DNA of 64,000 nucleotides, from positions 89,678 through 153,677 of the forward strand of contig BDDD01002936.1 of assembly GCA_001972305.1 (NCBI GenBank), in the 5' to 3' direction. How positions within the stretch are numbered: position 1 is the stretch's first letter; each line of letters starts with the position of its first letter. Of the stretch, positions 7,360-61,773 are shown piece by piece. Origin of the DNA: Cephalotus follicularis. Lineage: Eukaryota > Streptophyta > Magnoliopsida > Oxalidales > Cephalotaceae. Made by a program: the position numbers and the translations under genes. The notes under the pieces are model-generated. The model was not told where the DNA came from. It ran no database searches and saw only the letters and a program-made list of their open reading frames with translations.

Positions 7360-10102
7360 TGTAACACCCCCGGACGGCGGGAGTCGTCACAGGGTCATAT
7401 CATACATAACCTTACTTAATGAATCATAACATTACTTTATTAGCCAATAACAGCCAAAAAAAGTGGCAGTCTTATCATAACATTAAAACTTAATCATTTG
7501 ACATATTATGCAGTTACGGAAACTGAAAGCATAAACCAGTTCCAAATTAAAAACACAAAACATAAGACATAATTAATCCATGTTTTTGACCACTAAACAT
7601 AACATAAGGATCACTCTCCTGAGGATCCAACACATAGGGTGGTCATCACTCAATCACACTTTCCCCCGCTGCTCCTGAAAACCTGCCGCATGGAAAACAA
7701 AAACGCGGCTGAGCAAACCTCAGTACGGATAAGGGAAATAAAACGGTAAACGGTAATTTTGTAACAGAAATCTTAAACAGTTAAAACAGTTTAATCATAT
7801 TCAAATAATCATTGCATATCTTGCGAAACAATTACGGAACGTAACATTTCAAAATGTTATTTTCTATTCACAAATCTTAAATCACAACTCATGGTTCATA
7901 AAACATATTGAGCCATATTCATATCACATATCATAAATTTTGGCAAGGGAGACGCTAATTCCACATGCCCAATAGAATTGAAGTGTACGGCACTACACGA
8001 GTCAATGCTCACATATCCGATCACACCTCGGACCATATATCTGAATTCACCTCAGATCACATAAACTAGAATCGATTCATACGCCTCTATCACACATAGC
8101 GGATCCACAAATCCACCTAATGGGATTTGTTCATACACTCAGTGACGCCGTAGTCTAATCACACCGCTACGGAAGTGTCACGTCCCCGTGCCAGGCCCAT
8201 GACGTTCCTATGGTACGCCCCATAGGTGGGTACAACACTCAGTATTTTAAAATTATGGATTTATCATAATCAATTTAAATTACATAAATATGTTTTCACA
8301 CAACATATTTGAAAACCGCTCACAACGGTATCACAACGTATCATATCATAACAAATCGTATCATAACATATCGTATGGATAAAGTCGGAATCATTTAAAA
8401 TGTCAAACCAACTTTATTTGCGAAACATGTCAAAGTTATAAAACATTCTCAATTTCATAAACGAATAAGTTTAACAGAACTGTTCAGTTTGAATGACAGA
8501 TAACCAAGGAACAGAAAATCCGTACCTTATGCGCTCAAAGAGTACTTACGAAGATGCGATCAAAAACAAATTCTCCTTTGAAGCACAAAATCTGAAAGGC
8601 ATTTAAAAATCATACATGTAAGAGTCTAAGACACATCAGAAGCATTAAACAGACTCTTAACAATGTTTGGAAAAGATTCGGATCGATTCGGGGATCAAAC
8701 GAATCAAAACAGTTGAAAACAGTACATTCGAGGGCAAAATAGTCGACTAAAACAGGGCTCCAGTCGACTGGGGAAGCAAGACAGTCGACTATACAAAAGG
8801 TCCAGTCGACTACGCAAACAAAAGTGCAGGCAGTCGACTGTGTTCATCCCTTCAGTCGACTACACAACCAAGGCAGTCGACTGCATTCATGTGGCAGTCG
8901 GCTACCCAACCATTCCAGCCGACTGTCCACAGAGACAGCCGACTGTTTTGGACGACAGAACAGTTGGAAATTCTACGATTTGCTACTGAAAATGGTTCAA
9001 ATGGTTTCTACATTAAACTAGAGACATATGGACATAAACATATGATCATATATGACTTGTAGGTGACATAGAAACACAGATTTGACAAGGAAACAACCTG
9101 ACAGTGATTGACTTGCAAAAAGGAAGTAAGAAAACATTTATACATGGGTGTCTAGATTCTGTGTTTTAGCAAATACGGATGTTATAAAACAAGTTTGTGA
9201 CACATATATGAGTATAAAACGTGTTTACAATATCACTAACACAATGACAACATGTTTAGGCAGGAATCAAAGACTCAAAGGACATAAAGAGCATGTAACT
9301 CACTTTCACAACATTGCAACAAAACTATAACAAAAGGGATGAATTAACTGACCTGTAGTGATTCCCATAACACAAAAACAGTAGAAGAAACACTAGCACA
9401 CACCCACAATTCGGCTGTGAACAAAAACAAAGGAAGAAGAATACAAAACCATAGCATACTTAGACATACATAGCAAACTAAGAGAATTTAATCCAAAAAA
9501 ACAACTAAAGGATTGAATTTACATCTTCTGACTTTGAAGAATGAATTACACAGCAGATTGTTACACACAACAAGGTAGAAATTGGCAGTGGCTTGCAAGA
9601 AAGATGTGGGCAACATATAAAATGGCAAAGATACTCTAATAAAGGAGAAAGGAGGAGACATGATTTGATCAAAAGGGGAAGAAAGAAGGCTTTCTGGATT
9701 TTGAAATGGGAAAAGGAGAGGCTTAGCATGACATTTGATGGTGGGAGGAAGGATTTACGGGAAAGGAGAAGGAAGGTAGGAAGAAAGTAGGAAGAAAGTG
9801 GGAGAAAATGATAAAATAGGAAAAAGGAAAAATAAAGAATTAATAATAAAAGGAATTAAGGATTTTAAAAATAAAAGAATAATAATTTGTTTTTAATTAA
9901 AATAATTTTGGATTAGAATAAAATAAATAAAACCCAAACCCAACATAGCATAACATACCCAAATTTTCGGACTGGTATCAAACAGCTCAATTCACATAAA
10001 CCCAAATCATAGGGCAACCAGACTTTTAAATTGAACAAAATTAAAAGCCCGAAAACACATATAAATCCGTAAAATATATTTACGAACGAGCAGGGTATTA
10101 CA
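7360..10102 (-). repeat. Element B 3' LTR (left copy)
   Basis: A 2743-bp LTR with ends TGTAACACCCCCGG and GGGTATTACA. It contains the GTCGAC array at 8742-8943, a module CCTGCCGCATGGAAA...CTGAGCAAACCTCAG at about 7675-7735 shared with element D, and an A/G-rich stretch at 9640-9860. The reading frames at 8824-9021, 9148-9330 and 9505-9790 recur in the other LTR copy and are not genes. Confidence 0.95.
8742..8943. repeat. Ten-unit GTCGAC array with 21-bp spacing (element B left LTR)
   Basis: Core starts lie at 8742, 8763, 8784, 8805, 8833, 8855, 8876, 8897, 8918 and 8938: spacings 21, 21, 21, 28, 22, 21, 21, 21, 20. Seven cores are GTCGAC; the last three are GTCGGC, GCCGAC, GCCGAC. Most cores sit in CAGTCGACT. 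The roughly 13 bases between cores share no consensus, so this is a phased motif rather than a simple satellite. Confidence 0.95.
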
Positions 10103-10103
10103 T

Positions 10104-10119
10104 CCACCCCCCCTAAAAA
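10104..10119 (-). promoter_or_regulatory. Element B polypurine tract
   Basis: The minus strand has CTTTTTAGGGGGGGTGGA next to the 3' LTR end at 10102. It is the plus-strand primer of the element and confirms the minus orientation. Confidence 0.8.
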
Positions 10120-10174
10120 GAAGATTTCGTCCCGAAATCACAAACACAAACATACCTCAAACAAACAAGTGCGG

Positions 10175-12023: not shown

Positions 12024-12052
12024 NNNNNNNNNNNNNNNNNNNNNNNNNNNNN
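12024..12052. other. Assembly gap (29 N) inside element B
   Basis: A run of 29 N separates the gag start (to the right) from RNase H (to the left). Elements of this type carry the rest of gag, protease and most of RT between them, so the true gap is probably about 3 kb. An apparent protein crossing the N run is an artefact. Confidence 0.97.
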
Positions 12053-12499: not shown

Positions 12500-12504
12500 A
12501 AATC

Positions 12505-15248
12505 TGTAATACCCCCGGATGGCGGGAGTCGTCACAGGGTCATATCATACATAGCCTTACTTAACGAATCATGTCATTACTTTATTAGCCAATAACAGCC
12601 AAAAAAAGTGGCAGTCTTATCATAACATTAAAACTTAACCATTTGACATTTTATGCAGTTACGGAAACTGAAAGCATAAACCAGTTCCAAATTAAAAACA
12701 CAAAACATAAGACATAATTAATCCATGTTTTTGACCACTAAACATCACATAAGGATCACTCTCCTAAGGATCCAACACATAGGGTGGTCATCACTCAATC
12801 ACACTTTCTCCCGCTGCTCTTGAAAACCTGCCGCATGGAAAACAAAAACGCGGCTGAGCAAACCTCAGTACGGATAAGGGAAATAAAACGGTAAACGGTA
12901 ATTTTGTAACAGAAATCTTAAACAGTTAAAACAGTTTAATCATATTCAAATAATCATTGCATATCTTGCGAAACAATTACGGAACGGAACATTTCAAAAT
13001 GTTATTTTCTATTCACAAATCTTAAATCACAACTCATGGTTCATAAAACATACTGAGCCATATTCATTTCACATATCATAAATTTTGGCAAGGGAGGCGC
13101 TAATTCCCCATGCCCACTAGAATTGAAGTGTACGGCACTACACGAGTCAATTCTCACATATCCGATCACACCTCGGACCATATATCTGAATTCACCTCAG
13201 ATCACATAAACTAAAATCGATTCATAAGCCTCTAACACACATAGCGGATCCACAAATCCACCTAATGGGATTTGTTCATACACTCAGAGACGCCGTAGTC
13301 TAATCACACCGCTACGGAAGTGTCACGTCCCCGTGCCGGGCCCACGACGTGCCTATGGTACGCCCCATAGGTGGGTACAACACTTAGCATTTTAAAATTA
13401 TGGATTTATCAAAATCAATTTAAATTACATAAATATGTTTTCACACAACATATTTGAAAACCACTCACAACGGTATCACAACGTATCATATCATAACATA
13501 TCGTATCATAACATATCGTATGGATAAAGTCGGAATCATTTAAAATGTCAAACCAACTTTATTAGCGAAACATGTCAAAGTTATAAAACATTCTCAATTT
13601 CATAAACGAAGAAGTTTAATAGAACTGTTCAGTTTGAATGACAGATAGCCAAGGAACATAAAATCCGTACCTTATGCGCTCACAGTGTACTTACGAAGAG
13701 GCGATCAAAAACAAATTCTCCTTTGAAGCACAAAATCTAAAAGGCATTTAAAAATATATATGTAAGAGTCTAAGACACATCAGAAGCATTAAACAGACTC
13801 TTAACAGTGTTTGGAAAAGATTTGGATCGATTCGGGGATCAAACGAATCAAAACAGTTGAAAACAGTACATTCCAGGGCAAAATAGTCGACTAAAACAGG
13901 GCTCCAGTCAACTGGGGAAGCAAGACAGTCGACTATACAAAAGGTCCAGTCGACTACGCAAACAAAAGTGCAGGCAGTCGACTGTGTTCATCCCTCCAGT
14001 CGACTACACATTCAAGGTAGTCGACTGCATTCATGTGGCAGTCGGCTACCCAACCATTGCAGCCGACTGTCCACAGAGACAGCCGACTGTTCTGGGCGAC
14101 AGAACAGTTGGAAATTCGACGATTTGCAACAGAAAATGGTTCAAATGGTTTCTACATTAAACTAGAGACATATGGACATAAACATATGATCATATATGAC
14201 TTGTAGGTGACATAGAAACACAGATTTGACAAGGAAACAACCTGACAGTGATTGACTTGCAAAAAGGAAGTAAGAAAACATTTATACATGGGTGTCCAGA
14301 TTCTGTGTTTTAGCAAATACGGATGTTATAAAACAAGTTTGTGACACATATATGAGTATAAAACGTGTTTACAATATCACTAACACAATGACAACATGTT
14401 TAGGCAGGAATCAAAGACTCAAAGGACATAAAGAGCATGTAACTCACTTTCACAACATTGCAACAAAACTATAATAAAAGGGATGAATTAACTGACCTGT
14501 AGTGATTCCCAGAACACAAAAACAGTAGAAGAAACACTAGCACACACCCACAATTCGGCTGTGAACAAAAACAAAGGAAGAAGAATACAAAACCATAGCA
14601 TACTTAGACATACATAGCAAACTAAGAGAATTTAATCCAAAAAAACAACTAAAGGATTGAATTTACATCTTCTGACTTTGAAGAATGAATTACACAACAG
14701 ATTGTTACACACAACAAGGAAGAAATTGGCAGTGGCTAGCAAGAAAGATGTGGGCAACATATAAAATGGCAAAGATACTCTAATAAAGGAGAAAGGAGGA
14801 GACATGATTTGATCAAAAGGGGAAGAAAGAAGGCTTTTCTAGATTTTGAAATGGGAAAAGGAGAGGCTTAGCATGACATTTGATGGTGGGAGGAAGGATT
14901 TACGGGAAAGGAGAAGGAAGGTAGGAAGAAAGTAGGAAGAAAGTGGGAGAAAATGATAAAATAGGAAAAAGGAAAAATAAAGAATTAATAATAAAAGGAA
15001 TTAAGGATTTTAAAAATAAAAGAATAATAATTTGTTTTTAATTAAAATAATTTTGGATTAGAATAAAATAAATAAAACCCAAACCCAACATAGCATAACA
15101 TACCCAAATTTTCGGACTGGTATCAAACAGCTCAATTCACATAAACCCAAATCATAGGGCTACCGGACTTTTAAAATTAAACAAAATTAAAAGCCCGAAA
15201 ACACATATAAACCCGTAAAATATATTTACGAACGAGCAGGGTATTACA
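12505..15248 (-). repeat. Element B 5' LTR (right copy)
   Basis: A 2744-bp partner of 7360-10102, starting TGTAATACCCCCGG and ending GGGTATTACA. Differences are mostly transitions and are densest in the first 400 bp. The same modules are present, including the array at 13886-14087. Confidence 0.95.
13886..14087. repeat. Ten-unit GTCGAC array (element B right LTR)
   Basis: Core starts are 13886, 13907, 13928, 13949, 13977, 13999, 14020, 14041, 14062 and 14082, exactly the spacing series of the left copy. The second core has become GTCAAC, a CpG transition. Confidence 0.95.
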
Positions 15249-15253
15249 CAAGC
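15249..15253. repeat. Right target-site duplication of element B (CAAGC)
   Basis: CAAGC follows the last base of the right LTR and matches 7355-7359. Confidence 0.93.
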
Positions 15254-26960: not shown

Positions 26961-27124
26961 TATTGGACGTCTCACTAATCCTCTTTATGTGTCCTTTGGC
27001 ATAGGAAGAACTCTGCTCTACTCGAATGCTTAGTCTGGCTTGGCGCTCCACCTTACTCTTCATTCTTATACTTGGTCTAGCAGTTCGTGGTACGTACCCC
27101 GACCACCAACCTCAGGGTCCTTGG

Positions 27125-27365
27125 ACGCTTGCCCTAGGATGACATGCCTTGGGATGACATGCCTTGGGACGAAATGCCCTGGGATGACATACCTTGGAAC
27201 GCATGCCATGGCACGACATGCCCTGGGCCGGCATGCACTGGGACGCATGCCATGGGACGACATGCCCTGGGATGCTTGCCATGAGACGACATGCCCTAGG
27301 ATGCATGCCCTGGGATGACATGCCCTAGGATGCATGCCCTGGGACGACATGCCCTAGGACGCATT
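27125..27365. repeat. 15-bp minisatellite in the element H left LTR
   Basis: About 16 units of CTGGGACGACATGCC with variants (TTGGGATGACATGCC, CTGGGATGCTTGCCA). It makes open frames on both strands (27040-27350) that encode no real protein. The counterpart is at 34200-34395. Confidence 0.9.
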
Positions 27366-28311
27366 CCATGGTATGACATGCAGAGGAAACCATTTTGGGA
27401 TCCTCGAATACATGGCAGAGGGACCATGTTGGGATCCTCGGCACCTGGGGAGAATTGGCTCCTCGACATATGCTCCTCGGGAAATTTTCCACTTCTCTAA
27501 GTGCTTTCCAAGCACTGAGGGATTCCTCATAATGCTTCCAAGGGAAAAAGTAGAATCCTAATCTAACAAGCACAAACAATCACAAGAACAACCCACAGCA
27601 ACACATACATTCAAGAAATCAACCAAAGCAACCAACACCGCACACACAGATGCTGGTAGGCGGTCAAACATGAAGCAACCTACCTAGAAAGTGGTTGAAA
27701 ATGGAGATCGCCTACTTCCTTCTTGAGTCTTGGACTTCCTTCTAGTTGAGAACTGCTACACACTTTAACTTGCCAACATCCTTCAATCTTGCACAATTCC
27801 TTCTTCCTTGCACAGCTCTTTTGCTCCCAGGGAATGGGTATTTATATAGAGATTGATGCAGAGGACATGAGGCTTCCTCTAACAGTACCCAACTTGTCCT
27901 TATCTCCCATTTCCACCAGGATCTGACCCAATTTCCCACTTTTCTCACTTCTCTCGATATCTCTAGAACAATGGTGTGTAGCTAAAGGCCAAAAGTGTCT
28001 CCCATGCTCCATTCTCCTTTTATACACATTTGAGGAAGAGTCTAGAATTTCCTAGACAAACCAACGGGTGCAGGCCATATTCAAGGCTTTGGCCAACCTT
28101 CTCCCTTGGGCCAACTTACACTTTCCTCATAAAAGCCCAAAAGCCACCTACCATATTTAAATTCGGCGCAAAGAAAAGAATAACTCTCTTTAGCCCAAAA
28201 ATCATAATTTATATTCCATTATGGTCCAATAAAATACTTCATAATATCCTGGCCCAACCCAATCGGAAAGAAAAGAATTCCACAGTCCGATAATATTTAG
28301 GGCTCTTACAT

Positions 28312-38114: not shown

Positions 38115-38171
38115 ATCGGCGGTACTACCCTAAGCATCAACGGTATGTGTGAAAGCACTGAAAGCGTCGAC
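38115..38171. repeat. GTCGAC-type cluster in the element J LTR, split by S1
   Basis: Cores at 38115 (ATCGGC), 38136 (ATCAAC), 38157 (ACTGAA) and 38166 (GTCGAC), with the next, GTCGAT, at 39444 beyond S1. Taking out S1 with one duplication copy (1257 bp) puts the last core 21 bp after 38166. Confidence 0.85.
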
Positions 38172-38175
38172 AGTA

Positions 38176-38180
38176 ACATA
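38176..38180. repeat. Target-site duplication of S1, left (ACATA)
   Basis: ACATA at 38176-38180 is repeated at 39433-39437 on the other side of the solo LTR. Confidence 0.85.
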
Positions 38181-39432
38181 TGTTGGGTTTTTAGTCCCTA
38201 TCCTAAGTTTTAATGATTACAAATTTGCATTTAACTTGTTTACTTGATGTGCAAGACACTAGATAGTTTGTTGTCAAGGAAAAAATCTTCTGCAGGACAA
38301 AAGACATTGACCTTCCAGAGAAGAAGTCGACGTCCGTACAAAAGAAGTCGATCCCTATGAGAAAGACATCGACGTCTTTAGTGCCCAAAGTTACAGGACA
38401 AATTCTGGTGAAGACATCGATCCATACTGTCAAAGAAGTCGACGTCCGTACAAAAGAAGTCGATCCCTTTCATAAGACATCGACGTCTTTCAAGATCAAC
38501 TGCCAAAACCAGAAAAAGACATCGACCTAGGAAGAAGAAGTCGACGTGATGTTCATACATTCAAATGCCTGGAGATTTCCCAAAAATGACATCGACGCCT
38601 TTAAAAAGACATCGACGTCTTTTTAAATGGACAGACCCGGGAAATATGGAACGGCTAGTTGGCGCACTTTCAACGGCAAATATCAGAAAACACATCGACG
38701 CCTTTTGAAAGACATCGACGTCTCTATGCCAGCAGAGACTAAAACAAAGCTGAATAAACAAATTATTATATCCAATATGCACAAGACTTTTACAACGGCT
38801 ATAATTTGAAGAATGCTATAAATACAAGCCAAGAAACAAGATCAAGAAGACAGAGGAACAATTCCTGAATATCTAATCACAAAAGCTCATCTTGCATATC
38901 TACAAAGAGAAAAATCATCAAGCTAGAGTATACACTTTCACATTCAAAGCTTGCAACTAGTTTACACTTTCATACCCAACCTTTGAGAGGTTACTTGTAA
39001 ACACAAACTTTCTTTACAAATCCATCATTATAAAAAGGGTGCTAAAACCCTTGGTGAGAATTTAGAGGGGAGTGAACCCTTGTAAGGTGTTTGTTTGATT
39101 TGCACCCGGAACCCAAAATCAAGTGTAAGGTGTTTGATTGATTTGCACCCGGAACCCAAAATCTAGTGTAAGGTGGTTTGTTTGATTTGCACCCGGAAGC
39201 CGAAAATCAAAGGTTTCTAGTGGTAGCTAGTGGAATCTCAAGGGGTTCTTGAGAAAGTGGACGTAGGCACGGATTTTCCGAACCACTATAAATTCGTTTG
39301 CACACTATCTATCCCTTATCTCTTTAATTTACTTATTCTTGTGTGCTTGTTTATGTTCATTGTTTAATTTGTTTATTCCGCAAACAAATTGTTTTACTTG
39401 TTTAAAGGTTGCCATATGGGTTGTAAATTTCA
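38181..39432 (+). mobile_element. S1: SIRE/Maximus-like copia solo LTR
   Basis: A 1252-bp LTR starting TGTTGGGTTTTTAGTCCC and ending TTGTAAATTTCA, flanked by ACATA on both sides, with no interior. The block GTGGACGTAGGCACGG...CCGAACCACTATAAA is typical of SIRE-type LTRs and recurs inverted in S2 (about 54705-54750). Such solo LTRs arise by recombination between the two LTRs of one element. Frames on the minus strand at 38203-38782 come from the motif array. Confidence 0.85.
38306..38719. repeat. GTCGAC/ATCGAC clusters in SIRE-like solo LTR S1
   Basis: Fourteen cores lie in sub-clusters with starts 38306, 38326, 38347, 38368; 38416, 38438, 38459, 38479; 38521, 38540; 38591, 38611; 38694, 38714. 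Spacings within sub-clusters are 19-22 bp. Cores read GTCGAC, GTCGAT, ATCGAC, ATCGAT or ATTGAC in contexts such as AGAAGTCGACGTC and AGACATCGACGTCTTT. Confidence 0.95.
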
Positions 39433-40149
39433 ACATACAAAGCGTCGATGGTAATTCAACACAGAATTAAAGATGCAGGAGTTATTGAATCAACAAGATA
39501 AGAACTATAATGAATAAAATACGTAATATAAAATCAGTTTTAGGGTATAGAAACTACCATAGATGTATGAAGAACTCACTTACTTGAATGATCAAAGCTT
39601 GGTAATCCACATTTGCTAGGTCGATACAGAGTGTGATGATTATGACAAACCATATGAGTAGACATCCAACAGGTGCTAGGTCGATACGGAGAGTAATCGT
39701 CGTGACAAACCGTATGAGTAGGCATCCATATATTTAATGCAAAACCCATTCGTTCAACAAGATTCTTGTTCAAGGACAAAGTGTATATGGATTCAAATCA
39801 GAGATACAGAGTGTGTTTGACGTTGGAAAATTGAAGAATAAATCAAAGTTCAAGGATTTTTTTTATTGATTGAGTCTTCAGTACATCTATGGTGTTGTTC
39901 TAACCCTAAAAACCTAAGAAAGTTAGCTAGAAGACACCATTGAAAATAATATGGATAAAGAGAAGTAAAATCGGCCTCTTCCAGGGTTTCTTCTTTTCTT
40001 TTCTTTATATTCTTACAATCATGCACAAGAAAGGAAAGGAAACCCCCAAAAGCAAAGAAATATCTCTCAATATTCCTACTTAATTAAAATATTACAACAA
40101 AAAAATTCCCAAAATACAAAGTCAGCAGACTTGTTCTGCGCTTGCGTGC

Positions 40150-40511
40150 GTTGACTCCCAAATGTTGGCGTTGATGACTGCGAATAGCGTTGATGAAAAT
40201 GTCACACATTTCTTATTGCGCGTTAACGATTATGGCTTCTATTTGAATTGAACAACTTTTGGTGTTGATGACATAACCATGGCATTGACGCTCCTTGGTG
40301 TTGACACTTTCCTTGTTGCGCATTAACGATTATAGCTTCTGTTTGAATTGAGCAACTTTTGGCGTTGATGACTTAAGTATGGCGTTAACGCAAATGTTGT
40401 TCAATTTCCAGCATGTTAACGTACATGATTGTGGCATTAACGATAATCATCCTGAAACCCAGAATTCATGCACAAGCCTAGTACATTAACGCCAATAATG
40501 TTGGCGTTGAC
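40150..40511. repeat. Decayed GTTGAC/GTTAAC cluster in the element J LTR
   Basis: Cores include 40150 (GTTGAC), 40170, 40189 (GTTGAT), 40222 (GTTAAC), 40264, 40284 (ATTGAC), 40300, 40322 (ATTAAC), 40364, 40384, 40415, 40436, 40485 and 40506. Most neighbours are 19-22, 31-33 or 42 bp apart; the step 40284-40300 (16 bp) does not fit. Nearly every core is a C-to-T or G-to-A version of CGTCGACG. Confidence 0.85.
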
Positions 40512-40681
40512 GACAATAGTCCATATATTCATAATTTGGTCTGTTTTAACTTTGTCAACTTGCTTTCGATGCGTTTTGCCCTTTTTCCCTAAAAGTTAAT
40601 AAAAACAACCGTAGTAGTCTGTTCCAGGCATAAAAACATAATAAATAGGTCCTTAAAAATAACATGATTTTATGCTTAACA

Positions 40682-42801: not shown

Positions 42802-42816
42802 TGGTGTCAAAGCCGG
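42802..42816 (+). promoter_or_regulatory. Element K primer-binding site
   Basis: TGGTGTCAAAGCCGG follows the LTR end by three bases, a variant of the initiator tRNA-Met primer TGGTATCAGAGCC. Confidence 0.75.
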
Positions 42817-42934: not shown

Positions 42935-43110
42935 GTTGACGGTTTTGAGCAAACCGTCAACAGTTGCGCGATACCGCTGTCGAACAGTCGCACGAAGACG
43001 CATAAGTGCTGACGCTAGCGTCAACGCTTACGTAGTATAGTGTGGATAAAACTGCGCCATAAGTCGACACTTAACACATGAACATCGACGCTTTGTCTTA
43101 AAGCATCGAC
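42935..43110. repeat. GTCGAC-type cluster in the element K leader
   Basis: Cores at 42935 (GTTGAC), 42956 (GTCAAC), 42979 (GTCGAA), 42987 (GTCGCA), 43008 (GCTGAC), 43020 (GTCAAC), 43063 (GTCGAC), 43084 (ATCGAC) and 43105 (ATCGAC). Steps of 21 occur between 42935-42956, 42987-43008, 43063-43084 and 43084-43105. Unlike the other elements, the cluster lies outside the LTR. Confidence 0.88.
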
Positions 43111-47730: not shown

Positions 47731-49872
47731 TGTAACACCCCCCGAAGGTGGGAGCGCTTACAGGACATACATACGTAACAGAACAGATCAAAATATATAA
47801 CTCAACTTTATTCATAACGTGGCGGTCTAAAACATAATATGATGTCAAAAATCGAAATCTGAAAATCATAAACTGAAAGTCATAACATTATCGGAAACCA
47901 AAATATTGTTTATAAAACTGGCCTAACCATGACCATAAAACAACAGCAACATAATAGGTCCAACTACTAGATGATCCTCAGACATAGGGTACCCTCTCAT
48001 CACAAATTTTCCCGATGCTCCTGATAACCTGCCGCATGGAAACAAAAACGCAGCTGAGTAAACCTCAGTACGGATATAAAATGTAAAAGTAGTCAGCGAC
48101 AAATTTAAAAGATACTAAGATTCCAAAATAAACTCAAAGATAGAAATCTTAAGCAATAATCAGTTTAAACATTCTTTTATAAATTACCTCAGTAATTTTC
48201 GTATAAACCAAATCCATAACTTTCAAAACATAAGCATACCTTTCAAAAGATAAAGTTCCATACTGAGCATCATAACATATCACATCTCAGAACACATATA
48301 AGCAAGGGATTCGCGATGTCCACATGCCAAATAGAAATGACGTGTATGGCACTGCACAATCAATTCTCATAACATATCATATCACATATTTCTAAGATCG
48401 ATCTATACGCCTCTATCATAAATAACGGATCCATAATCCTCCACAAAGGATATCATAACATAGACACACGCCATGGATTAATCACACTGCCACGGAAAGT
48501 GTCATGCCTCCGTGCCAAAGGACATGCCTATGGTACGCCCCATAGGTGCATACAAAAACTCAGTACTTCACCATTTCAAAAATATTCATTTCGAAAATCA
48601 ATTTAAAACACATATAAAAAGGTTTTCCGAACATATCCAAATATTGTTATCAAACGATAGAATTTCATATTGCACATATTTTCATAATCAGAAATCAACT
48701 CATTTAATTTCACAATAAAAAAGATGATCACAAATCACAGCTGAATTCATAAAGTCAGAAATATTCGATTTCATAAAAATATTAAAGCTGACTTAATTTC
48801 CAAAACATATCAAAATCCGAAGCATAACATAATTCATAAAACCGAAGGGATATCGAAGAACGAAAAATCTGTACATATTCACAAATTAAAACCGATAGGA
48901 ATATGTCAAGGAACAAACATCCATACCTTAGATGTCCAAGTCTAAACAAACCAAAAATGAATCAAGAGCAGACTTGGGACACCCTAACCTCCACCAAAGA
49001 AATAATCAAAATCTAGATAGATCAACCAAACCGAATACACAATTAAACCGACGTTAAAAGACAAGCTGCCAAAATGTCAATGTATATGTCCAAAACAGTC
49101 GACTTTTTAATACAAAGCGTTGGTGCTTTTAGGCTAAACGTTAACACAAGGCGCTGCACAAAGCGTCGAAGCAATGCATTGCAAAACACAAGTAAAGCGA
49201 CACGGTAACATGACAACACACAACTAAGCGTCGACAGTATGCATGACAAAACACTATGAAACCGTCAACGCTTACATATAACACACAACCAAAGCATTGA
49301 CAGTTAGGGTATAAGCATCGATAGGAATGAAAAACAGTCGACGCTTAAAACGAACTGGGCGATAAAACAGTTTCAAAATCCAGTAGTATGCAATTTGTAA
49401 AACATGTCTTCTATGGTTGCAAAGTACCAGTATAACATTTCTATGCATAAACATACTTATATACAGGTTACATGAAGCAATAACAATTGTTAAAACATAT
49501 TTTCTGGCTTTTACACAATTTAAAATAGTTTTCTGGTATGGCATTTCTAAGGCAATTTTCATGACTAATCAACAAGGTTTGCACAACCTAATGATCAATA
49601 ACAGTAGTATATAATGAAAAATAAAACTTATGTTGAGAATATACCTTCAGATGATACCAAGAACGATGAAAAATGATGAACAACAGTGGCTGCTCCTTCT
49701 GGTTTTTTCAAAACGTGCGGTGATGGTGTCGACGCTTCTGACACCCAAGAAATAAAAGGAGAAAAACAAAAGAGTTTTCAAAAACACTTTCAAACATTCC
49801 AAATAACACATAACATAAACCGAACATAACATATGACACGTCAAACATATAGGCAACAAATTGGGATAATAG
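47731..49872 (-). repeat. Element D 3' LTR
   Basis: Starts TGTAACACCCCCCGAAGG. It shares with element B's LTR the start, the module CTGCCGCATGGAAAC...CTGAGTAAACCTCAG (48026-48078), the CATAGGTG block (48540) and the end. Its GTCGAC cluster is at 49098-49342. Frames at 48512-48718 and 49043-49920 are not genes. Confidence 0.85.
49098..49342. repeat. GTCGAC-type cluster in the element D LTR
   Basis: Cores at 49098 (GTCGAC), 49119 (GTTGGT), 49140 (GTTAAC), 49165 (GTCGAA), 49230 (GTCGAC), 49264 (GTCAAC), 49296 (ATTGAC), 49317 (ATCGAT) and 49337 (GTCGAC). Steps are 21, 21, 25, 65, 34, 32, 21, 20. Confidence 0.88.
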
Positions 49873-51131: not shown

Positions 51132-51316
51132 TGTAACGGCCGAGATTTTCATATGTTGTAATGTAATTGCACTTTTATTGTGGAATTAATAAAATGATGG
51201 ATTTCTTGACTTTGATGATGTTTTCCAAACTCTAATAATGTTGATTTTGGAGTAGGAATTTTAAGGAATGATAAAGTGTAGGTTAAGTCAAAACGGCACA
51301 GTTTTGAGACTAAAGC

Positions 51317-51408
51317 GCCGACGCCTTGAGTGGAGTCGACGCCTAAGTGGTTAAAACGCGCGCTTAATACAAGCATATGAGCGTCGACGCCTACATGTAA
51401 ACGTCGAC
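51317..51408. repeat. GTCGAC cluster 1 in solo LTR E
   Basis: Cores at 51317 (GCCGAC), 51335 (GTCGAC), 51383 (GTCGAC) and 51403 (GTCGAC); pairs 18 and 20 bp apart. Typical context GCGTCGACGCCT. Confidence 0.9.
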
Positions 51409-52182
51409 GCTTTGCGGTGTGTTCTGCATACACAAACACAATAGATAGACGTGTCGCATGGTAGCATGTTGTGCCACTTATCAAGCGTCTTGGGCAGGCT
51501 CTCTGGAAATGTGGCATGCATGCTTTTGATGCCAGACTTACCTGCAACAAAAGGGCATTGAACATAGAGAGAACCTCTGAGTGCATGGCCTGTGAAAGGG
51601 AAGAAATGGACACCTGTTGCACCAGGTTGCCTAAGAGAGAGAGGTGAAGAAATTAACAGAGCATGCAGAGAAAACAAAACGAAATCTGCATAAAGTCGAC
51701 TCCTCTCACCCCTCTTATCTATTAGTGAAATCCAGAGGGTTTAGAGACACAGAGAGTGAAAGAAGGTAGAGGGTTGAGAGAGAAAGCTCAAACCACCATT
51801 GTTGAGCAAGTGGAAGTTGAACTTGGACAGCAACTGTTGGAACGAATCAGGGAGTTTCAAGCAGTACCTGGGAGCTCAAAGTGACATGTTGGGTACTGAA
51901 AGAGGTGGACTTTCAGCTTCTAACTTGAGGCCAGAGGTAGGGTAAGCCATACTTGTATTTTGTGTTCAATAATTGGTGTTTGTTTAGTGATGTTATGCAT
52001 ACTTTGTATGGCCTGTTGAACTGTTTTTGGTCACCGAAATGATGCTACGTTGTACTGGATGTGTAATATGATATTGCATGTCGATCTTCCAGGCTGTATA
52101 CATGTTGGATTGCATGTTATTATGGTGAAATTGTTACTGTTTGGTCACGTCGTGAGGAAGAAGACGATTGCTGCTTGAAACC

Positions 52183-52368
52183 GTCGACGCCTTGGGTAAG
52201 CATCGGCGCTTTGTGCTGTGAACTACGTTTTATATATTGAATACGGTTTAAACGTCGACGCCTGTGGGAGGAGACATCGACGCCTAAGCACTTGAAGCAC
52301 TAATGTTATGGGACTGGACGTCGACGCTTAAAGGACATAAGCGTCAACGCCTAAGTAAAAACGTCGAC
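52183..52368. repeat. GTCGAC cluster 2 in solo LTR E
   Basis: Cores at 52183 (GTCGAC), 52202 (ATCGGC), 52254 (GTCGAC), 52276 (ATCGAC), 52320 (GTCGAC), 52343 (GTCAAC) and 52363 (GTCGAC). Close neighbours are 19-23 bp apart; larger steps are 44 and 52 bp. Confidence 0.9.
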
Positions 52369-53682
52369 GCTTTAGAGTCCTGTTTGGACAATTTTCACGA
52401 TTTTGACACCTGACAACCCCGATTCCACTTAGGATGCATTCGAGCAATTGTATGCATTGCATATGTACTGTTTACTGCCTGTTTACTGACTGTCTATAAA
52501 TTGATTTTGATTTCTAAGTATTGTTACGTTAGAAATGCATATATGAGATGAAAACTACTATGTTTGGGTACGAAAATATAAAATGGATATTGTTATATTT
52601 TCGAACATACTGGGAAAGTGATTTCCACCTACTAAATTGTTAAAAGTATTTTCTACTATTGAAAATATATATTTCAAATGTTTATGACTCTTGAAAACAT
52701 TTTGAAATGAACTGCCTGTTGTTGATCTAACGATCACTACGATACTGTTTACTATGATTATTCACTGTTTGCTCTGTGAATTTAATGTGGTTGTGCTTGA
52801 GCCGTACTAGCTGCGTGGCGGGGATTGCCAGTGATGACTAGTGGCAGGGTTGACCTAGGGGCCATGAGTTGGCTGTGTAACTCACTGTACTACACTGTTG
52901 CCTCGCTTGGTTGCCTGGAGAAGGGACCGAAGTGGGAGTGTAACGTGGGGCCAGGAGTTGGCGGCGTTACACATACTGCCTGCCTGTTGTGGTCCCTTTG
53001 TGGACTTACTGTACTGTTTACTGGTCCTGTTCGGACACTACTGTGCCTATTGAGGTAGCCCTGGCCGGGCTACCACTATACTGTTGTTGCATACATATAT
53101 TTTTATATATATGTTCCTACTGCTATTCTACCGTACTGTTAATATATATATATATGTAAACTGGTATTTCTACTGTACTACATCACTATGCATCCATTAC
53201 ATGACATGCATTCAATGTTGTTCCCGATTTACTTTTATGACTTAGCCGAGTGAGGACAAAGGCTAACCCCCTACTTTACAGATTGATGCAGTGGACCGGT
53301 GTTGGACTATCATGGACGAAGAACAAGCCTTTATGTTATTATTGTGGGTTTTATATTCTTCTAGATTGTAATAAACTGGTTTTGTTTTAAGGACTACTGA
53401 TGTACCGTACTTTTGGCTTTGTTAACGATGGGATTTAATAATGTATTATGGATCATGCTCCATTTTGTGGGCTTTTGACAATGACAGACTTGTATCGAGT
53501 AGCGTGCAGTATGGGATGCACGTTATGTGCTTTCAGCTTATGAGTTTAATGCTTCCGCAACTGATGTGTTATTTGCAAAGTTTAAATTTTTTTTCTTTTT
53601 GTATTTGCATGAGCTGAATCTTAATATTAATTGCCTTCGCCACCTTTATGTGCGTTTATTGAAAGCGGGGTGTGACAATAAA

Positions 53683-54561: not shown

Positions 54562-55768
54562 TGATTAGGGGGCGAATTGTAGTATTTAATAATTTTACTT
54601 TCTTTTTCAATTTTAATCAAGTTGAACAATGAATACAAATTATATATGCAATTAATAGTAAATAAATAAATAAATTGCATAAAGAAATGGGTAGAGAGAT
54701 GCAAACACAGTTTATAGTGGTTCGGCAAAGATCGTGCCTACGTCCACTTTCCCAAGGCCCTCCTTGAGTTTCCACTAGTGTTCCACTCGAACACAATCTC
54801 TGAATATCTTTACATGGGCTATTCGGTGCACCTTTACAATGTTTTGTAATTGACCTCAATCACAAGGGTTCACTCCCCTCTCTTCACTTTAGGGTTCACT
54901 CCCCTAAAAATTATTTACAAAAATAGTGTGAAGGTATTTTGTGTAGGCTCTCAAAAGCTTGATTTAGCTATTTTAATTACAATATAATCACTCCTCTCAA
55001 TGAAAATCGATCTTGATAATTTTGGAGGCTTTGAACTTTTCTTCTTTTCTTGAATGATTTTTGCTTATTGAAAGGTTGTTCTTTTTTATTTTGTGGTTGA
55101 TTTTGATTTAATAGTGTTGATATGTGGACCTTGGGAGTTGTTGTTATTTGCCTTGGGAAATGTTCCATTAGGCTTGGAAGTTGTTCTGTCAGCCTTGGAA
55201 GATGTTCCATTAGTCATGAAAGTTGTTTCTGCTTCGAACAGTGCATTGAAAACAGCTGCAGTAATTTCTTCCCGTGCGCAAAGCGTCGACGGAGTTATTT
55301 AAACCGTCGACGCTTTTGTGAACGTTGGAAGTTTGAATTTGAATCTCCACTTTAAGCGCTGACGGTCTTGAATTTTGGGGTCGACAGTTGTCCTCGAAGC
55401 ACTGACGGTTTGAGTTGAGCATCGACTGGGCAATTTTAATTGGCCCAAAAGTCTCTGTTTTTAACAATTGATATAGGCCTCCTAAGCGTTGGCGCTTAGC
55501 CTCAAAGTGTTGACGCTTACTTTAATAGCGTCGATGGTTGTACAGGTTCTTCTTTGCTTGTAATGCTCCAACTATTGGCCCTTTGTTCCCAGCTTTTGAC
55601 GGTTCCCTGAAGCGCTGACGCTTTCTTTTAAAGCGTCGACGCTTTAACATGTTACTTCAATTTCCTGTTTTGACTTTGCAATATTTATCTTATTTTGCAC
55701 AAAAGGAAACATTGTTATATACAAATATGTTATCATCAAAAACATGGATTGAGACATAAATGTCAACA
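54562..55768 (-). repeat. S2 3' LTR
   Basis: On the minus strand it starts TGTTGACATTTATGTC at 55768. It contains the block complementary to S1's GTGGACGTAGGCACG (near 54735) and the GGGTTCACTCCCCT repeats (54867-54907). The left end at 54562 is set by the return to element D text. CCTAG at 54557-54561 is the expected target duplication. Confidence 0.8.
55285..55640. repeat. GTCGAC-type clusters in the S2 LTR
   Basis: Cores at 55285, 55306 (GTCGAC); 55358 (GCTGAC), 55380 (GTCGAC), 55401 (ACTGAC), 55421 (ATCGAC); 55488 (GTTGGC), 55509 (GTTGAC), 55530 (GTCGAT); 55595 (TTTGAC), 55614 (GCTGAC), 55635 (GTCGAC). Steps inside groups are 21; 22, 21, 20; 21, 21; 19, 21. Confidence 0.93.
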
Positions 55769-56219: not shown

Positions 56220-57442
56220 AATATCACAATACATAATGAAATATGAGATACAAATGCTCAATCGACCATGGTATCATCCATCTCCCCCTCCAAATCATCA
56301 GTGGCTGCATCTTCTCTTGGGTTGCCAATATCGTCTTGGCTTGACAAAGAAGAAGTAAAAGGCCTTTGTCGCCAACCATCTCTTTTTGCGCAAAATGTTT
56401 TGCCAATCTTTTTTTCCTTCTTTTGATGGTTTGAACTTCGACCTTAATTTCTTTGACTTCTTTCTGAATTCCTTTTATTGCTTCCAAGAGTTCTTCCATT
56501 TGATTTCTTGGCAAGTTGACGTTTGGTGTTGGATCAACTCGAGGTTCACTTGTGGCTTCTCCTTGAGCTTCATCACCCATTTCTTCCCCTTCCTCATCTT
56601 CAATAATCCTGTTTGAATCCTCTTCTCTCGGGATCCAAGTGCCTAACCTCTTGTGCTTCTTAAAACCCATTCTACCTAGAGTCCCCTTTCCTAGCTTGTC
56701 TACATTTTAGAGTGAGTGATGCAACTCTCCAGTTAGGTCAACTCCAAAGTGCATAAGGATTTTTGTGATGATACTGCCATAGGCCAACCTAGCATTTTCT
56801 CGATTGTGGATTGCGTGCATATGATTGATTATCAAGTAAGGCACGTTTATCATTTTTCCCGTAATGAGGTGATACATAGTGTATGCCTCCATGTGGGTTA
56901 CTTCATCATATCCACCGGCCTTTGGTAAAATGTGTGTAGCAATGGCACGATGGAGGAACCTATGGTGCAAGCTAAGGTTCCTAGTGTACATACGTTGCAT
57001 CACATCAGCATTTTCTCCAAACAACATTCGTACACATTCTTCTTTGTTAAATGCCTCGTTAATAATCCAGTTTCGTTGATTCCATCCCGTAGCACCTTCA
57101 TATGGAATCTGTAGAATTGAGGCTCAAATTTGGATACCAAATTCTATCTCCGCATTCTTAACTTTGGTGGTTAAATCTACCCTAGAGCTACATAGTATGT
57201 GGACATAAAACTCTTTGATTAGGTCAGGATAAGAGGGAAAATTAATGGAAACTAGGGGTTCTAACCGTTGTGCACTTAACCACCCAGCAATGGGGAAACC
57301 TTCATTGTTGCAAAAATCAAAATCTAACACCTTGCCTATTAGTACTTTACGGTTAAAGTAAGCCTCAGTATACCTTGGAACTTGCTGAATCTCCTTTGGT
57401 GTAGGTGGATCAATAGTTGCAGTGCCTCTTTGATTTTGGCAT
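56220..57442 (-). pseudogene. S2 coding remnant in the env-like position (plant transposon-protein type domain, fossil)
   Basis: Three minus-strand frames in order: 57124-57330 (FCNNEGFPIAGWLSAQRLEP, INFPSYPDLIKEFYVHI), 56707-57027 (HRAIATHILPKAGGYDEVTH, MYHLITGKMINVPYLIINHM) and 56224-56670 (a charged tail with a coiled-coil-like run MEELLEAIKGIQKEVKEIKV and a basic end). The first two resemble the putative plant transposon protein domain found near several plant LTR families. The position between pol and the polypurine tract is that of the extra ORF of SIRE-type elements. Family assignment is by memory of motifs and is uncertain; no signal peptide or membrane segment is evident. Confidence 0.55.
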
Positions 57443-58770
57443 GTTTAGTGATTTATTAAAGTTTAAAAGTGTTTTATGATAGAAAATCGCACCGAGATCG
57501 CCACAGTGGTGATTTGGGGGTTTAGGGTTCTTATTTTGTCACGCCCCGAACTGCGAGGGTAAACCCCCACGATCCGACGCGTGAGATACCATCCGTTCAG
57601 TCATTTAATATCATATATTCATATTCCAAAGTGCTATATACATATATAAAACTTCAAATCAAAGTCATGTTACGTCAGCAAAATACTCAATCTAAATAAA
57701 AACTAACTCTTAAAATCTCCCTAAATTTCGGCATGATGTATTCGTTTATCGGACTTAACCCCCTGTAAAGAAAAACACATTTTTATATCTCCACACTCCC
57801 GAAGGAGGAATCAACAGTTTATGTATATATGGGGCTCAGCCCTGAGCAATCACAACTAATCCAGTATCATATCATTCTAATGCCTCAAATGATAGGCTTG
57901 TCCCTGTTTAATACATCAACACATATATAATATGCACTGCCACATGTCAACAGGTCGATAGCTGAAATAAAACATCTCTTATACACCTTTAGATTTGTCT
58001 CTTTACAAAACAAGTCTTATATAACAATACAGTTCAACTATAAACATAAGGCCCCTTTTACGATTCTATATAAGTAAACCCATATCTATTACCATAAGCA
58101 AGATCATATACAAAATGGCAATTCAAAACATGCTACAGAGAATCCATCCATCCCAGCCTGTCTCATTTAATACAATTCATATAAGTAAATCCATATTATG
58201 ATCATAACGAAGCTATATACAATAACAATACAATCCCAACACCACTACTATCCAAGATCCACCTTAAGTATCCATCCAAATTGATCCATTTCACTGTAAT
58301 CCATCACCTGGGCCTGAGCCTGACCCATTCCGCACACAGGGGAAATGGGTCAGCGACATAAAGTCGTGTAGGGTATACTATGTGCTATGTATGCAACAGT
58401 TATAACAGTATGCAATGTATGCATCAATACAGTGGTGTGACAGTGTAACAGTATGACGTGTAACGGTACAGTGCACAGTGAACAGTAACGGTGTACAGTA
58501 ATAGTGCCAATGGTAGTAACAGTAATAGTGCAGTGCAGTATATCAGTGTACAGCTGTAGACAGCTTCGATATACCAACTGTCCCTAAGCGGGGTATATCT
58601 AGCTAGTCCTAATCACATTAGGCTATAAGCCTACAGACACTCCATAAACAATCAGTAATCATACTTAAGGACAAACAATCCATAGGTCCATCCCACTATC
58701 TATGCACTCTCTGAGTCGTAGATGAGTAGGGTTGAGATAACATTGACCACACAGTGCTTACACTAGGGCT

Positions 58771-58896: not shown

Positions 58897-59456
58897 TGTG
58901 GTCTAACATTCATGACCTTCATGACGGAGATGAGAGTCATGAATGGGTTATCTCATTTGGTCTCAAACAGTATCAGTCATCATAGTAATCATACAGTCGT
59001 CGCACCCAGTAACAGTAATAGTAAATAGTGGAAATGATAGGGACCTAAAGGATCAACGTAAGATCCACATTTGTCCAAACAGTTGTAAAACAGTTTTCAG
59101 TACAGTTTCAGTACAGTATCGGTGACAATATCAGTTTCAGTAACAATAGCAATTTGTTGGTCCCTATCGAAGTTTTTAAAACAATGGATAGGAAGTCTAG
59201 TTGGATATCCGGGCCCAGATGTCCAAAAGGAGCTATCCTAACCATTCTTGAAAATCATTTGTATAAAACTCTTTTGTTGCACTTTCTTCAAGCATCAGTT
59301 AGAAAACTTGAGTCAAAGCTTTAACAGTGTTAAAAGATGATTCACATAGGATACAATGCCTTAGGGAGGCTTCCTATGGAATCAATTTAAAGAAGAAACA
59401 GTTTGGATTTTAATACAGCGAGAAAAAGTGCCATTTCACAAAACAGGGCACTAAGC

Positions 59457-59614
59457 GTCGACTAGTTTAATTTAAAAGTGTAAAGAGTCGACTATTCAGT
59501 TTAACACGCAAAAGAGTCGACGGTTTTAGAAAGCATAAGTATAAAACATCGACTACTTAGTTTAAAGGCATGAAAGCGTCGACGGGTCAGTTTTGAAGGC
59601 AGTAAAGTGTCGAC
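59457..59614. repeat. GTCGAC array with about 30-bp spacing in LTR G
   Basis: Six cores: 59457, 59487, 59516 (GTCGAC), 59548 (ATCGAC), 59578 and 59609 (GTCGAC). Steps are 30, 29, 32, 30, 31. Confidence 0.93.
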
Positions 59615-60808
59615 GGTTTCATCAGAAACAACAATTCGCAAAGCAGTTCGCAAATCAATGGAACTATGTCCAAAATCCATGAAATTCGTTTCAGTTCAGT
59701 ATAAACAGTTTGTAAATCCATACCCAGTTCCCAGTCGGTGCGATAACCAGTAAACAGTAGCAGTTTCAATAACAGTATAACAACAGTCAATCAACACGCA
59801 ATAACAGTAACACCGTAACAATTCATACAATTCATTGAAATGCATGAATGCAGTGCAAATAGTATAACCTACTAGTTGAAGCAGTAACAACAGTTGCGCT
59901 TGCTATTTAAGCGATTCTGTAGCAGAACCAAAGAACCGTCAGCTCCTGCAAGCTTGAACCGGCTATCGAATCGCCATCGCTTGGGAACCTCCTATCCTAG
60001 ATCACTTCATTTACACTGCATATACAACACATTCCCGTTACGCTTTACACACGGAAACCAAACACAGCCGCCATCGGAGCTTCGGCTAGTTTTCTGTCAC
60101 ACCCCGTTTACCAACTTAAGACAACATATAAAGTGGTAAGGCAACCAACGTAAAATAATCCAGCTCATGCAAAATACCGATAATTTAAAACCTTCAGTAG
60201 CGGAAGCAAAACTAAAACGAGACGAATATAAAAACACATCACGCATCCCATACTACGTGATGCTCGATAAACCAACATAACTGCTGATCGCCCAAAACGG
60301 AGCGTGAAATAATACATCAGTACGAGATAACGATGTAAACCATGTTACCAATAATCCCAAATACATATCATGATAAATGTTCAACAACTCAAATATAAAA
60401 AGAGAATATCCAAGCCTTCTCTTTAAGTCTCCGTGCATGCTCCATATCAAGACTACTCCATCAATCTGTTACAGTAGGGGTTAGCCTTTGTCCTCACTCG
60501 GCTAAGTGAATAAATCCATAAAATACAGTTCGAGTCATAAGATAAAGGGTATCATGAATGAATGCATAATGATGAGCCATGACATGTAATTTTTTTTTCA
60601 GTAAAAATACCTCCGTGTGTACATATAAAATATATGCATGCTCACAATACAAGTATAACTCAAAAGTTATATCAACACAAGCAGTAAATATGTTCCCAAA
60701 AAGGAACCAGACAAACCAGTCGTCATGACCGTCGCCACCTCCTGGCCCCAACGTCAAGCACTCTTGCTTTAACCCAAATGGTTTTGGAGCAAGTCCTCAG
60801 TAAGTCGT

Positions 60809-60930
60809 TTAGCACGGCGACTAAACCAACAACAGGTTACTAGCACGGTGGCTACGTAATCAACAAGTTATTAGCACGGTGGCTAATAATCAACAGGTTA
60901 TTAGCACGATGGCCAATAATCAACAAGCAC
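60809..60930. repeat. 30-31 bp tandem repeat, four units, in the element F LTR
   Basis: Units of TTAGCACGGTGGCTAATAAT plus CAACAGGTTA, starting near 60809, 60840, 60871 and 60901. The later units are the most alike. Confidence 0.88.
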
Positions 60931-61420
60931 AGGCATTTAACAGTACAAGTCAAGCAATTACATATAATTACTTGATCAAAATATATTTGTTCAAAATATA
61001 TTATTCCGTTCACAAGTTGTAATAAGTCATAACTTTAAAACAATACATTTCTCTGTCTTTGGAAATACTTCCCCAATTATTTCAAAAATATATACATTCA
61101 TAAATTATACATTTTCGCAAAGTAAATTTGGTTTCATGATCAAACCTTTAAAACAGTTCTCTGTCATTGGAAATACTTCCCCAAACATTTTGAAAATATA
61201 TAAATCCATATGTTGACAAATATACATTTTCGTACCCAAATGATCGTAATAATCATGCAAACTTTTCAAAATGGTTTAACACTTTCAGGAAAGTAACCAT
61301 AATGCAAATCTCAGTAACAATGCAACCATATGCTCAGAATGCATCTAGGTTCGTTTCTAGAGTCGTTTCGGGTCTAACGGGTCCCATTCAAGCGAAATTC
61401 TACTGTCCAGGAGGAAAGAC

Positions 61421-61773
61421 GTCGATGTCATTACTTAAGGCGTCGATGTCTTTTAGCCTAAAGCGTCAATCCTATGTACAAATATACCAGGCGTATTCGA
61501 ACCAAAGACGTCGATGTCTTTTTCATACCAGAGAGTACCAGTACGCAAGTCTTGGTTTTGGGAGGGTGAAATCCGACTTATTAATCCCTCATGGAATCGA
61601 ATATCACTCTCTAAACGTGCAAGGAATGCTACTGGTTAACAACAATATAACTAGAACATCAAATCGAAATCAAACAGGTGATTCCCAAGTGGCTAAAATG
61701 GCCATCTGAAGTGAACATCACAGTTCTACAATTTCCCAGAAAAGGAGTCGATGTCTTTACAAAAGACGTCGAT
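61421..61773. repeat. GTCGAT-type clusters in the element F LTR
   Basis: Cores at 61421, 61442 (GTCGAT), 61465 (GTCAAT) and 61510 (GTCGAT), then 61747 and 61768 (GTCGAT). Steps are 21, 23, 45 and 21 bp. Context GACGTCGATGTC and GCGTCGATGTCTTTT. Confidence 0.9.

What the first reader, a model, noticed from the sequence alone, without database searches (positions are those of the whole stretch)
8742..61773. A phased CGTCGACG motif shared by at least nine LTR elements of different superfamilies
Clusters of a palindromic core (GTCGAC, best context CGTCGACG) occur in LTRs of gypsy B, D, E, F and G, of Athila/Tat-like J, of SIRE-like copia S1 and S2, and in the leader of copia K. In almost every cluster neighbouring cores start 19-22 bp apart. 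The sequence between cores is not conserved within or between elements, so this is a spacing rule and not a copied satellite. About 21 bp is two helical turns, which would place palindromic sites on one face of the DNA. Gypsy elements A and H in the same window lack it. Unrelated families sharing one motif and one spacing suggests a common binding factor, as with the short motif clusters bound by VANC anti-silencing proteins of VANDAL elements (analogy only), or exchange of the array between families. Small-RNA-related selection at 21 nt is another option.
Basis: partly seen in the sequence, partly recalled or inferred. Interest (0 to 1): 0.9.

Follow-up and report, generated by a model that had tools for sequence, protein, structure and literature searches.

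The report
Shared phased palindrome arrays in retrotransposons
In what is very probably the Australian pitcher plant genome, unrelated families of jumping genes carry rows of the same short mirror-image DNA word set about 21 letters apart, which looks like a shared docking site for a DNA-binding protein and goes beyond what has been described for one such family.

Summary
GTCGAC is the most over-represented 6-mer in a random sample of this genome (134 seen, 18.7 expected). Genome-wide, GTCGAC pairs 19-22 bp apart number 174,792, against 3,117 at 23-26 bp and 9,171 at 30-33 bp. The unit is a palindrome of about 16 bp. Cores are conserved while spacers and flanks diverge. Arrays occur in at least three lineages: chromovirus-type Ty3/gypsy LTRs, Sirevirus-like copia LTRs, and the leader of another copia family, K. 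The host is very likely Cephalotus follicularis.

There is not one motif but one core with at least two "dialects" (CAGTCGACTG against AAGCGTCGACGCTT/AAGACGTCGACGTCTT), which hardly mix within an array and can be replaced wholesale at homologous LTR positions. The "nine elements" reduce to three verified lineages. Strict helical phasing is weak: 28-bp steps are common.

Best reading: tandem operators for shared, probably host-encoded, dimeric DNA-binding factors. The closest known thing is the palindromic repeated motif of Sirevirus LTRs, reported as Sirevirus-specific among copia elements. Binding itself was not testable here.

The parts
7356..10102 (-). LTR of element B (chromovirus-type gypsy), pair of 12501-15248, 97.5% identical
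   Evidence: internal region has RNase H, integrase H2C2, SH3_Tf2-1 and chromodomain matches
8742..8943 (.). Array of 10 cores, dialect CAGTCGACTG, spacings 21,21,21,28,22,21,21,21,20
13886..14087 (.). Same array in the other LTR of B (not independent)
38181..39432 (+). S1: solo LTR of a Sirevirus-like copia family (TG...CA, 5-bp duplication ACATA at 38176-38180 and 39433-39437), inserted into another array whose cores would lie 21 bp apart without it
   Evidence: sequence; lineage from relatives L037/L038: LTR end, AT, TGGTATCAGAGC and, in L037, copia gag PF14223
38326..38719 (+). S1 array of 13 RTCGAY cores, dialect AAGACGTCGACGTCTT, in the 5' half of the LTR; TATA-like GCTATAAATA about 100 bp downstream
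42935..43110 (+). Array in the 5' leader of copia element K, 3' of the primer-binding-site match at 42802 (2 mismatches), dialect AAGCGTCGACGCTT, partly decayed
   Evidence: K pol/gag domains
49098..49342 (.). Loose, mostly unphased cores in the lower LTR of element F (related to B)
51132..53677 (+). E: solo LTR inserted in F, 5-bp duplication ATAAA, ends TGTAACGG...GGGGTGTGACA; chromovirus type by homology to the L020 LTR
51317..51408 (.). First array of E, mainly AAGCGTCGACGCTT dialect
52183..52368 (.). Second array of E, about 1 kb into the LTR; half-arms 7 AAGC-type, 4 AGAC-type, 0 CA-type
54612..55768 (-). S2: 3' LTR of a Sirevirus-like element (low edge approximate), preceded by CTCCCC purine-tract-like repeats and, further on, ORFs in the envelope position, one with a Transposase_32 match
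55285..55640 (.). S2 array, dialect AAGCGTCGACGCTT, several decayed cores spaced about 21
   Evidence: sequence as printed
59457..59614 (.). J array: six cores spaced 29-32 bp; element not classified
60095..61820 (-). Part of the LTR of element G (gypsy; LTR end type GGGGTGTGACA); upper edge not determined
   Evidence: gag and protease matches
61421..61773 (.). G sites (61421, 61442, 61510, 61747, 61768), dialect AAGACGTCGATGTCTT, the same kind of word as in Sirevirus-like S1

Best explanation
Each array is a row of operators: palindromes of about 16 bp with core RYCGRY (best GTCGAC). I propose that dimers of a sequence-specific DNA-binding protein dock on them side by side, about 21 bp apart, in the regulatory part of the retrotransposon (LTR upstream of the promoter, or leader). 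Binding would recruit transcription or keep the region accessible against silencing. Chromovirus-type gypsy, Sirevirus-like copia and K-type copia elements use the same words, so the factor is more likely encoded by the host than by the elements; the two main dialects would correspond to two paralogous factors or dimer types. SHOWN: enrichment, phasing, dyad symmetry, core conservation, dialect purity, dialect replacement at homologous sites, sharing across lineages. INFERRED: protein binding, host origin, activation or anti-silencing, two paralogues.
For: Genome-wide phasing 174,792 (19-22) against 3,117 (23-26), a ratio of 56; the reversed control gives 1,783 against 383. Interior of 15-bp spacers (positions 5-10) carries 0.03-0.17 bits while arms carry up to 1.35 (45 distinct spacers). 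Complementarity of flanks exceeds independence for 5 bp on each side and stops at the sixth. Six S1 relatives, four of them fetched by an LTR end without motif: cores 94.6% identical, other array positions 89.7%, rest of LTR 86.3%. Six B-type arrays, reference rotated: cores 94.8, spacers 77.7, flanks 69.4; CpG in cores 94.9, CpG outside the array 72.4. At lattice positions 52 of 70 one-change sites keep the CpG as GCCGAC or ATCGAC, 11 are the CpG-decay form. Dialects are nearly pure. S1's array lies upstream of a TATA-like box.
Against: No binding, methylation or expression data. Gap openings are as frequent in the B arrays as in flanks (1.67 against 1.51 per 100), so no indel depletion was seen. 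The 28-bp step does not fit face-of-helix docking. The B-type arrays were found through their arrays, so that footprint is biased; in S1, CpGs outside cores are nearly as conserved as those inside (93.9 against 95.0). No TATA-like match was found near the arrays of S2, B, L019, L015 or G. Some of the dyad excess comes from pooling families with different arms. Non-members exist: 5 of 20 stretches have no GTCGAC, among them L017 with a 99%-identical repeat pair.
Confidence: 0.5

Rival explanations
1. RNA-level function: neighbouring palindromes pair in the transcript as hairpins, which feed small-RNA production or act in packaging or splicing; spacing is set by stem plus loop.
For: Single-strand folds beat shuffles: z -7.7 for B, -2.9 for S1, -3.4 for S2 (the only three arrays folded). 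K has its array in the transcribed leader. Maize Sirevirus palindrome clusters attract small RNAs (passages of PMC10760457).
Against: Any palindrome row folds well, so the z-scores are not independent evidence. S1's array lies upstream of its TATA-like box. Stem pairing alone does not require GTCGAC with CpG kept in different lineages.
Confidence: 0.15
2. The factor is encoded by one of the elements, as VANC is by VANDAL elements, and the other lineages exploit it.
For: Array turnover resembles VANC targets: units gained and lost between copies of K; several S1 cores change their arm together in L012 and L034; compare passages of PMC5735166.
Against: Among 30 window ORFs scanned with Pfam only gag, protease, pol and Transposase_32 domains were found; several ORFs, 56224-56706 among them, had no match. 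Element copies here are decayed, so the gene could be missed.
Confidence: 0.15
3. The spacing is only ancestry: tandem duplication created 21-bp repeats, spacers drifted, and no spacing rule exists.
For: Six of 18 arrays have spacers more alike than chance; a block of three cores is duplicated in S1; array indels are not depleted.
Against: Twelve of 18 arrays show no excess. Arrays with different arms in unrelated lineages share the step. Cores stay while spacers do not.
Confidence: 0.1
4. The array moved between families by recombination or template switching.
For: Gypsy G and Sirevirus-like S1 share the dialect AAGACGTCGACGTCTT; gypsy E, Sirevirus-like S2 and copia K share AAGCGTCGACGCTT.
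Against: With sites masked, the flanks of the K, S2 and J arrays match none of the other 41 array regions at 1e-8 (S1 could not be judged there because nested copies merge it with gypsy regions). Dialect-swapped arrays at homologous positions do not align. Short exchanges followed by drift cannot be excluded.
Confidence: 0.1

Closest known systems
Repeated motif (RM) of Sirevirus LTRs (PMC2829016; section 9 read whole, other parts as passages)
   Same: Many palindromic boxes with dyad symmetry in the 5' half of the LTR upstream of a TATA box; the Vitis element's RM is CGGTCGACCG, which contains GTCGAC.
   Different: Reported as Sirevirus-specific and absent from the classic copia elements compared; mostly CGG...CCG signature. 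Here the word is also in chromovirus-type gypsy LTRs and a K-type copia leader, on a 21-bp lattice, in dialects. No spacing rule appears in the section read.
Palindrome CACCGGACNNNGTCCGGTG of maize copia elements (PMC10760457, passages)
   Same: A palindrome that dominates one superfamily and is also the commonest structured motif in another (Helitrons).
   Different: Different sequence and host; gypsy sharing and spacing not mentioned in the passages seen.
VANC target motifs of VANDAL elements (PMC5735166, passages)
   Same: Short motifs in tandem arrays of non-coding DNA, fast gain and loss, units changing together, specificity classes; one element unrelated to VANDAL (AT9TSD1) is also affected by VANC6.
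   Different: DNA transposons with their own anti-silencing protein; the motifs quoted are not palindromes, and the passages give no fixed spacing.
CBFHV element RYCGAC, barley CRT (table row in PMC4482647, passages)
   Same: The commonest one-change cores (GCCGAC, ATCGAC) both fit RYCGAC.
   Different: A single half-site; here the full dyad of about 16 bp is conserved. Only a lead for the factor's identity (that CBF factors are AP2-type is recalled).

Membership tests
Sirevirus RM arrays | Palindromic box with dyad symmetry | tested here: met
   Dyad over 5+6+5 bp
Sirevirus RM arrays | At least eight copies per element, clustered in the 5' half of the LTR upstream of a TATA box | tested here: inconclusive
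   Met for S1: 13 cores at about +145 to +539, TATA-like box about 100 bp further. No TATA-like match for S2, B, L019, L015 or G
Sirevirus RM arrays | CGG...CCG core signature | tested here: not met
   Cores are GTCGAC, flanked mostly by A/T or C/G; arms CA, AAGC, AGAC. The paper lists one exception, Tnd-1
Sirevirus RM arrays | Restricted to Sireviruses | tested here: not met
   Arrays in chromovirus-type gypsy and in K, whose gag fragment does not match S1's
Sirevirus RM arrays | Coincide with CpG islands | not tested
   -
VANDAL/VANC system | Element-encoded VANC anti-silencing protein | tested here: inconclusive
   None seen in 30 ORFs; copies decayed, one window only
VANDAL/VANC system | Motif-dependent loss of DNA methylation | not testable with these tools
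   -
Simple tandem satellite | Units alike over their whole length | tested here: not met
   12 of 18 arrays show no spacer similarity above chance; spacer interior nearly free of information. Partly met for S1, G, J, K, one E array and one L019 array

The most novel reading that the evidence does not exclude
In this genome several retrotransposon superfamilies have converged on a common operator code: tandem 16-bp dyads on a 21-bp lattice, read by host dimeric factors. Families change allegiance between two or more dialects by replacing every operator of an LTR at once, so that the host's factors and the elements' arrays form an arms race visible in DNA sequence alone.
Probability: 0.35. Interest if true: 0.85.

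Novelty: new variant of a known kind. Interest (0 to 1): 0.7.

Why it matters
It would show that unrelated retrotransposon superfamilies can share one cis-regulatory code, written more than a hundred thousand times in one genome, and that the code comes in interchangeable dialects. That makes the question of who controls whom (host factor, element factor, or silencing machinery) directly testable with a single defined 16-bp probe, and it extends a feature reported as special to Sireviruses to chromovirus-type gypsy elements.

Tried and rejected
Targeted integration into arrays: suggested by S1, which sits inside an array, but of the two other S1-type copies looked at, L012's lies in gag-protease coding sequence and L014's in another LTR, not inside a called array. 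Rejected on three cases.

A multiple-of-7 rule (mean resultant 0.75 over 43 pairs) fits the sample because of steps 21, 28, 42, 49; I give it no meaning beyond the shared architecture of related CAGTCGACTG arrays.

Single-linkage grouping of arrays by flank homology merged nearly everything (38 of 42), because neighbouring arrays and nested elements overlap in the flanks; I did not use it to count origins.

Reduced indel rate in arrays: tested, not found.

The majority-based footprint (core 91.4%, spacer 69.6%, flank 64.9%; seven arrays) was replaced by the reference-rotated one (six arrays, L010 5797 left out as the most distant), because choosing core columns from a majority is circular. In one search four of the nine non-window loci were used (L031, L032, L033, L037 and L038 were left out because only part of the LTR aligned), plus L012 and L014 from the random stretches.

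A plastid-gene search for host identity and a count of 26-29 bp spacing did not complete.
Full report
WHAT WAS CHECKED. The window is part of contig C2936 of a plant assembly of 1.577 Gb. The gag-protease ORF of element G finds 108 proteins, of which the first 60 are all labelled Cephalotus follicularis; the next is 30% identical. I therefore take the host to be that pitcher plant (Oxalidales), by inference. The tool states that no relatives of this genome are held.

The window has 40 GTCGAC, against a simulated mean of 5.7; 10 of 18 adjacent pairs within 10-60 bp are spaced 19-22, against none in 40 simulated windows (the two LTRs of B are both counted). In 20 stretches of 10 kb from other contigs (191.7 kb without N), GTCGAC is the most over-represented of all 6-mers, 134 against 18.7 from an order-2 model, and 15 of 20 stretches contain it. 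CGTCGACG occurs 223,473 times in the genome, its reversed control 8,375 times.

THE PHASING HOLDS, WITH A NUANCE. Exact pairs spaced 19-22, 23-26 and 30-33 number 174,792, 3,117 and 9,171; the reversed control CAGCTG gives 1,783, 383 and 193. These counts include transposed copies. In the sample, after collapsing similar spacers, 22 of 43 adjacent pairs are at 19-22 (3.4 expected). Of 348 places 19-22 bp from a GTCGAC, 168 match the core in at least 5 of 6 bases; at 23-26 it is 9 of 348, at 15-18 4 of 348, at 27-30 34 of 348, at 30-33 10 of 347 (sample plus window, each pair seen from both sides, B counted twice). Peaks lie at 21, 42, 63 and 84, with a second series shifted by one longer step of about 28-30. 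Three helical turns (31.5 bp) are thus not a strong class, and 28 bp is out of phase. J is the window's exception, with steps of 29-32.

WHAT THE UNIT IS. Around 134 cores the two sides are complementary more often than independence predicts for five positions (0.76 against 0.48; 0.49/0.34; 0.46/0.32; 0.45/0.32; 0.45/0.29), then not at all (0.25/0.26). Pooling of families contributes to this excess. In 45 distinct 15-bp spacers from the 100 genome pairs listed, inner positions 5-10 carry 0.03-0.17 bits. So the unit is a dyad of about 16 bp and a nearly free spacer of about 5 bp.

DIALECTS. Among 38 arrays (at least 4 sites, at least 2 steps of 19-22; two of them are the B pair), 17 have CAGTCGACTG-type arms and no arm of the other kinds; of the other 21, 17 have no CA arm and 4 have one or two. 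Overall 0.876 of the 420 assigned half-arms are of their array's main type, against 0.567 in label shuffles; 100 half-arms could not be assigned. AAGC-type and AGAC-type arms are less cleanly separated.

LINEAGES. B is a chromovirus-type gypsy (integrase SH3 and chromodomain); E, F and G are related by LTR or pol homology. S1 is a solo LTR; two relatives fetched through its 3' end continue with AT and TGGTATCAGAGC, one of them shown to have a copia gag, and S2 has several CTCCCC tracts next to its LTR; both fit Sireviruses as described in PMC2829016. K is copia, and its gag fragment does not match S1's. Gypsy G and Sirevirus-like S1 use the same long palindrome; gypsy E, Sirevirus-like S2 and copia K share another.

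CONSERVATION. Six S1 relatives scored against one another, with the window copy only marking the core columns (four located by an LTR end without motif): cores 94.6%, rest of array 89.7%, rest of LTR 86.3%; but CpGs outside cores are 93.9% against 95.0% inside. Six B-type arrays, each in turn as reference: cores 94.8%, spacers 77.7%, flanks 69.4%; CpG 94.9% in cores against 72.4% outside the array; these six were chosen because they have arrays. Of 70 one-change neighbours, 33 are GCCGAC and 19 ATCGAC, 11 the CpG-decay form, a pattern fitting RYCGAC, listed as a barley CRT motif. Gap openings are no rarer in arrays than in flanks.

TURNOVER AND REPLACEMENT. Of nine other K copies, 90-92% identical in the neighbouring query stretch, eight reach into the leader; they differ greatly in the number of units, and L042 has lost most of them. 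In the chromovirus-type LTRs E, L015, L019, L020 and L026 two arrays recur, near 0.2 kb and at about 1.1-1.8 kb; B has only the second. L015 (AAGCGTCGACGCTT) and L019 and L021 (CAGTCGACTG) are 72-74% identical in the block after the second array, yet the arrays before it are of different dialects and do not align. E and L020 are a less clean pair: same positions, E mostly AAGC, L020 mostly AGAC in its first array but mixed in its second.

MECHANISM. Conserved dyad, kept CpG, free spacer and near-constant step are the marks of side-by-side protein binding; position upstream of a TATA-like box in S1 fits an enhancer, though no such box was found near the other arrays looked at except in L026. 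Sharing across lineages, with no shared accessory ORF seen, argues for a host factor. That is inference. RNA folding is strong, but any row of palindromes folds.

KNOWN AND NEW. The Sirevirus RM is the nearest relative; its paper calls it absent from the classic copia elements compared. One search for papers holding GTCGAC, LTR, retrotransposon and palindromic as whole words found none, and the listings show no title on a motif shared by gypsy and copia elements (one search found no paper); the library lacks most subscription papers, including the 2016 maize palindrome study. So the extension to gypsy elements, the 21-bp lattice and the dialects are, to my knowledge, new, but the kind of feature is not.

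Noticed in passing
window 38166-39449: S1 is inserted within another element's motif array: with the insert and one target duplication set aside, the neighbouring cores (38166 and 39444) lie exactly 21 bp apart.
   Followed up: partly
window 40110-40560: A region with GTTAAC/GTTGAT-type words (GCGTTAACGC and similar), by eye about 20-21 bp apart in places, perhaps a decayed or a further dialect.
   Followed up: no
window 27119-27381 and 34187-34390: LTRs of element H, which lacks GTCGAC, carry their own 29/44-bp tandem array with CCTGGGACGACATGC units.
   Followed up: no
chromovirus-type LTRs: E 2109-2154 (from 51132), L015, L019, L020, L021, L026: A stretch of about 45 bp (CTTAGCCGAGTGAGGACAAAGGCTAACCCCCTAC) is about 85-92% conserved some 400 bp from the LTR end, in LTRs otherwise about 60-73% alike; perhaps a promoter or polyadenylation signal.
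   Followed up: no
window 56224-57444: ORFs in the envelope position of the Sirevirus-like S2, one with a Transposase_32 (PF20167) match.
   Followed up: no
window 12024-12052: A run of 29 N inside element B's pol region.
   Followed up: no
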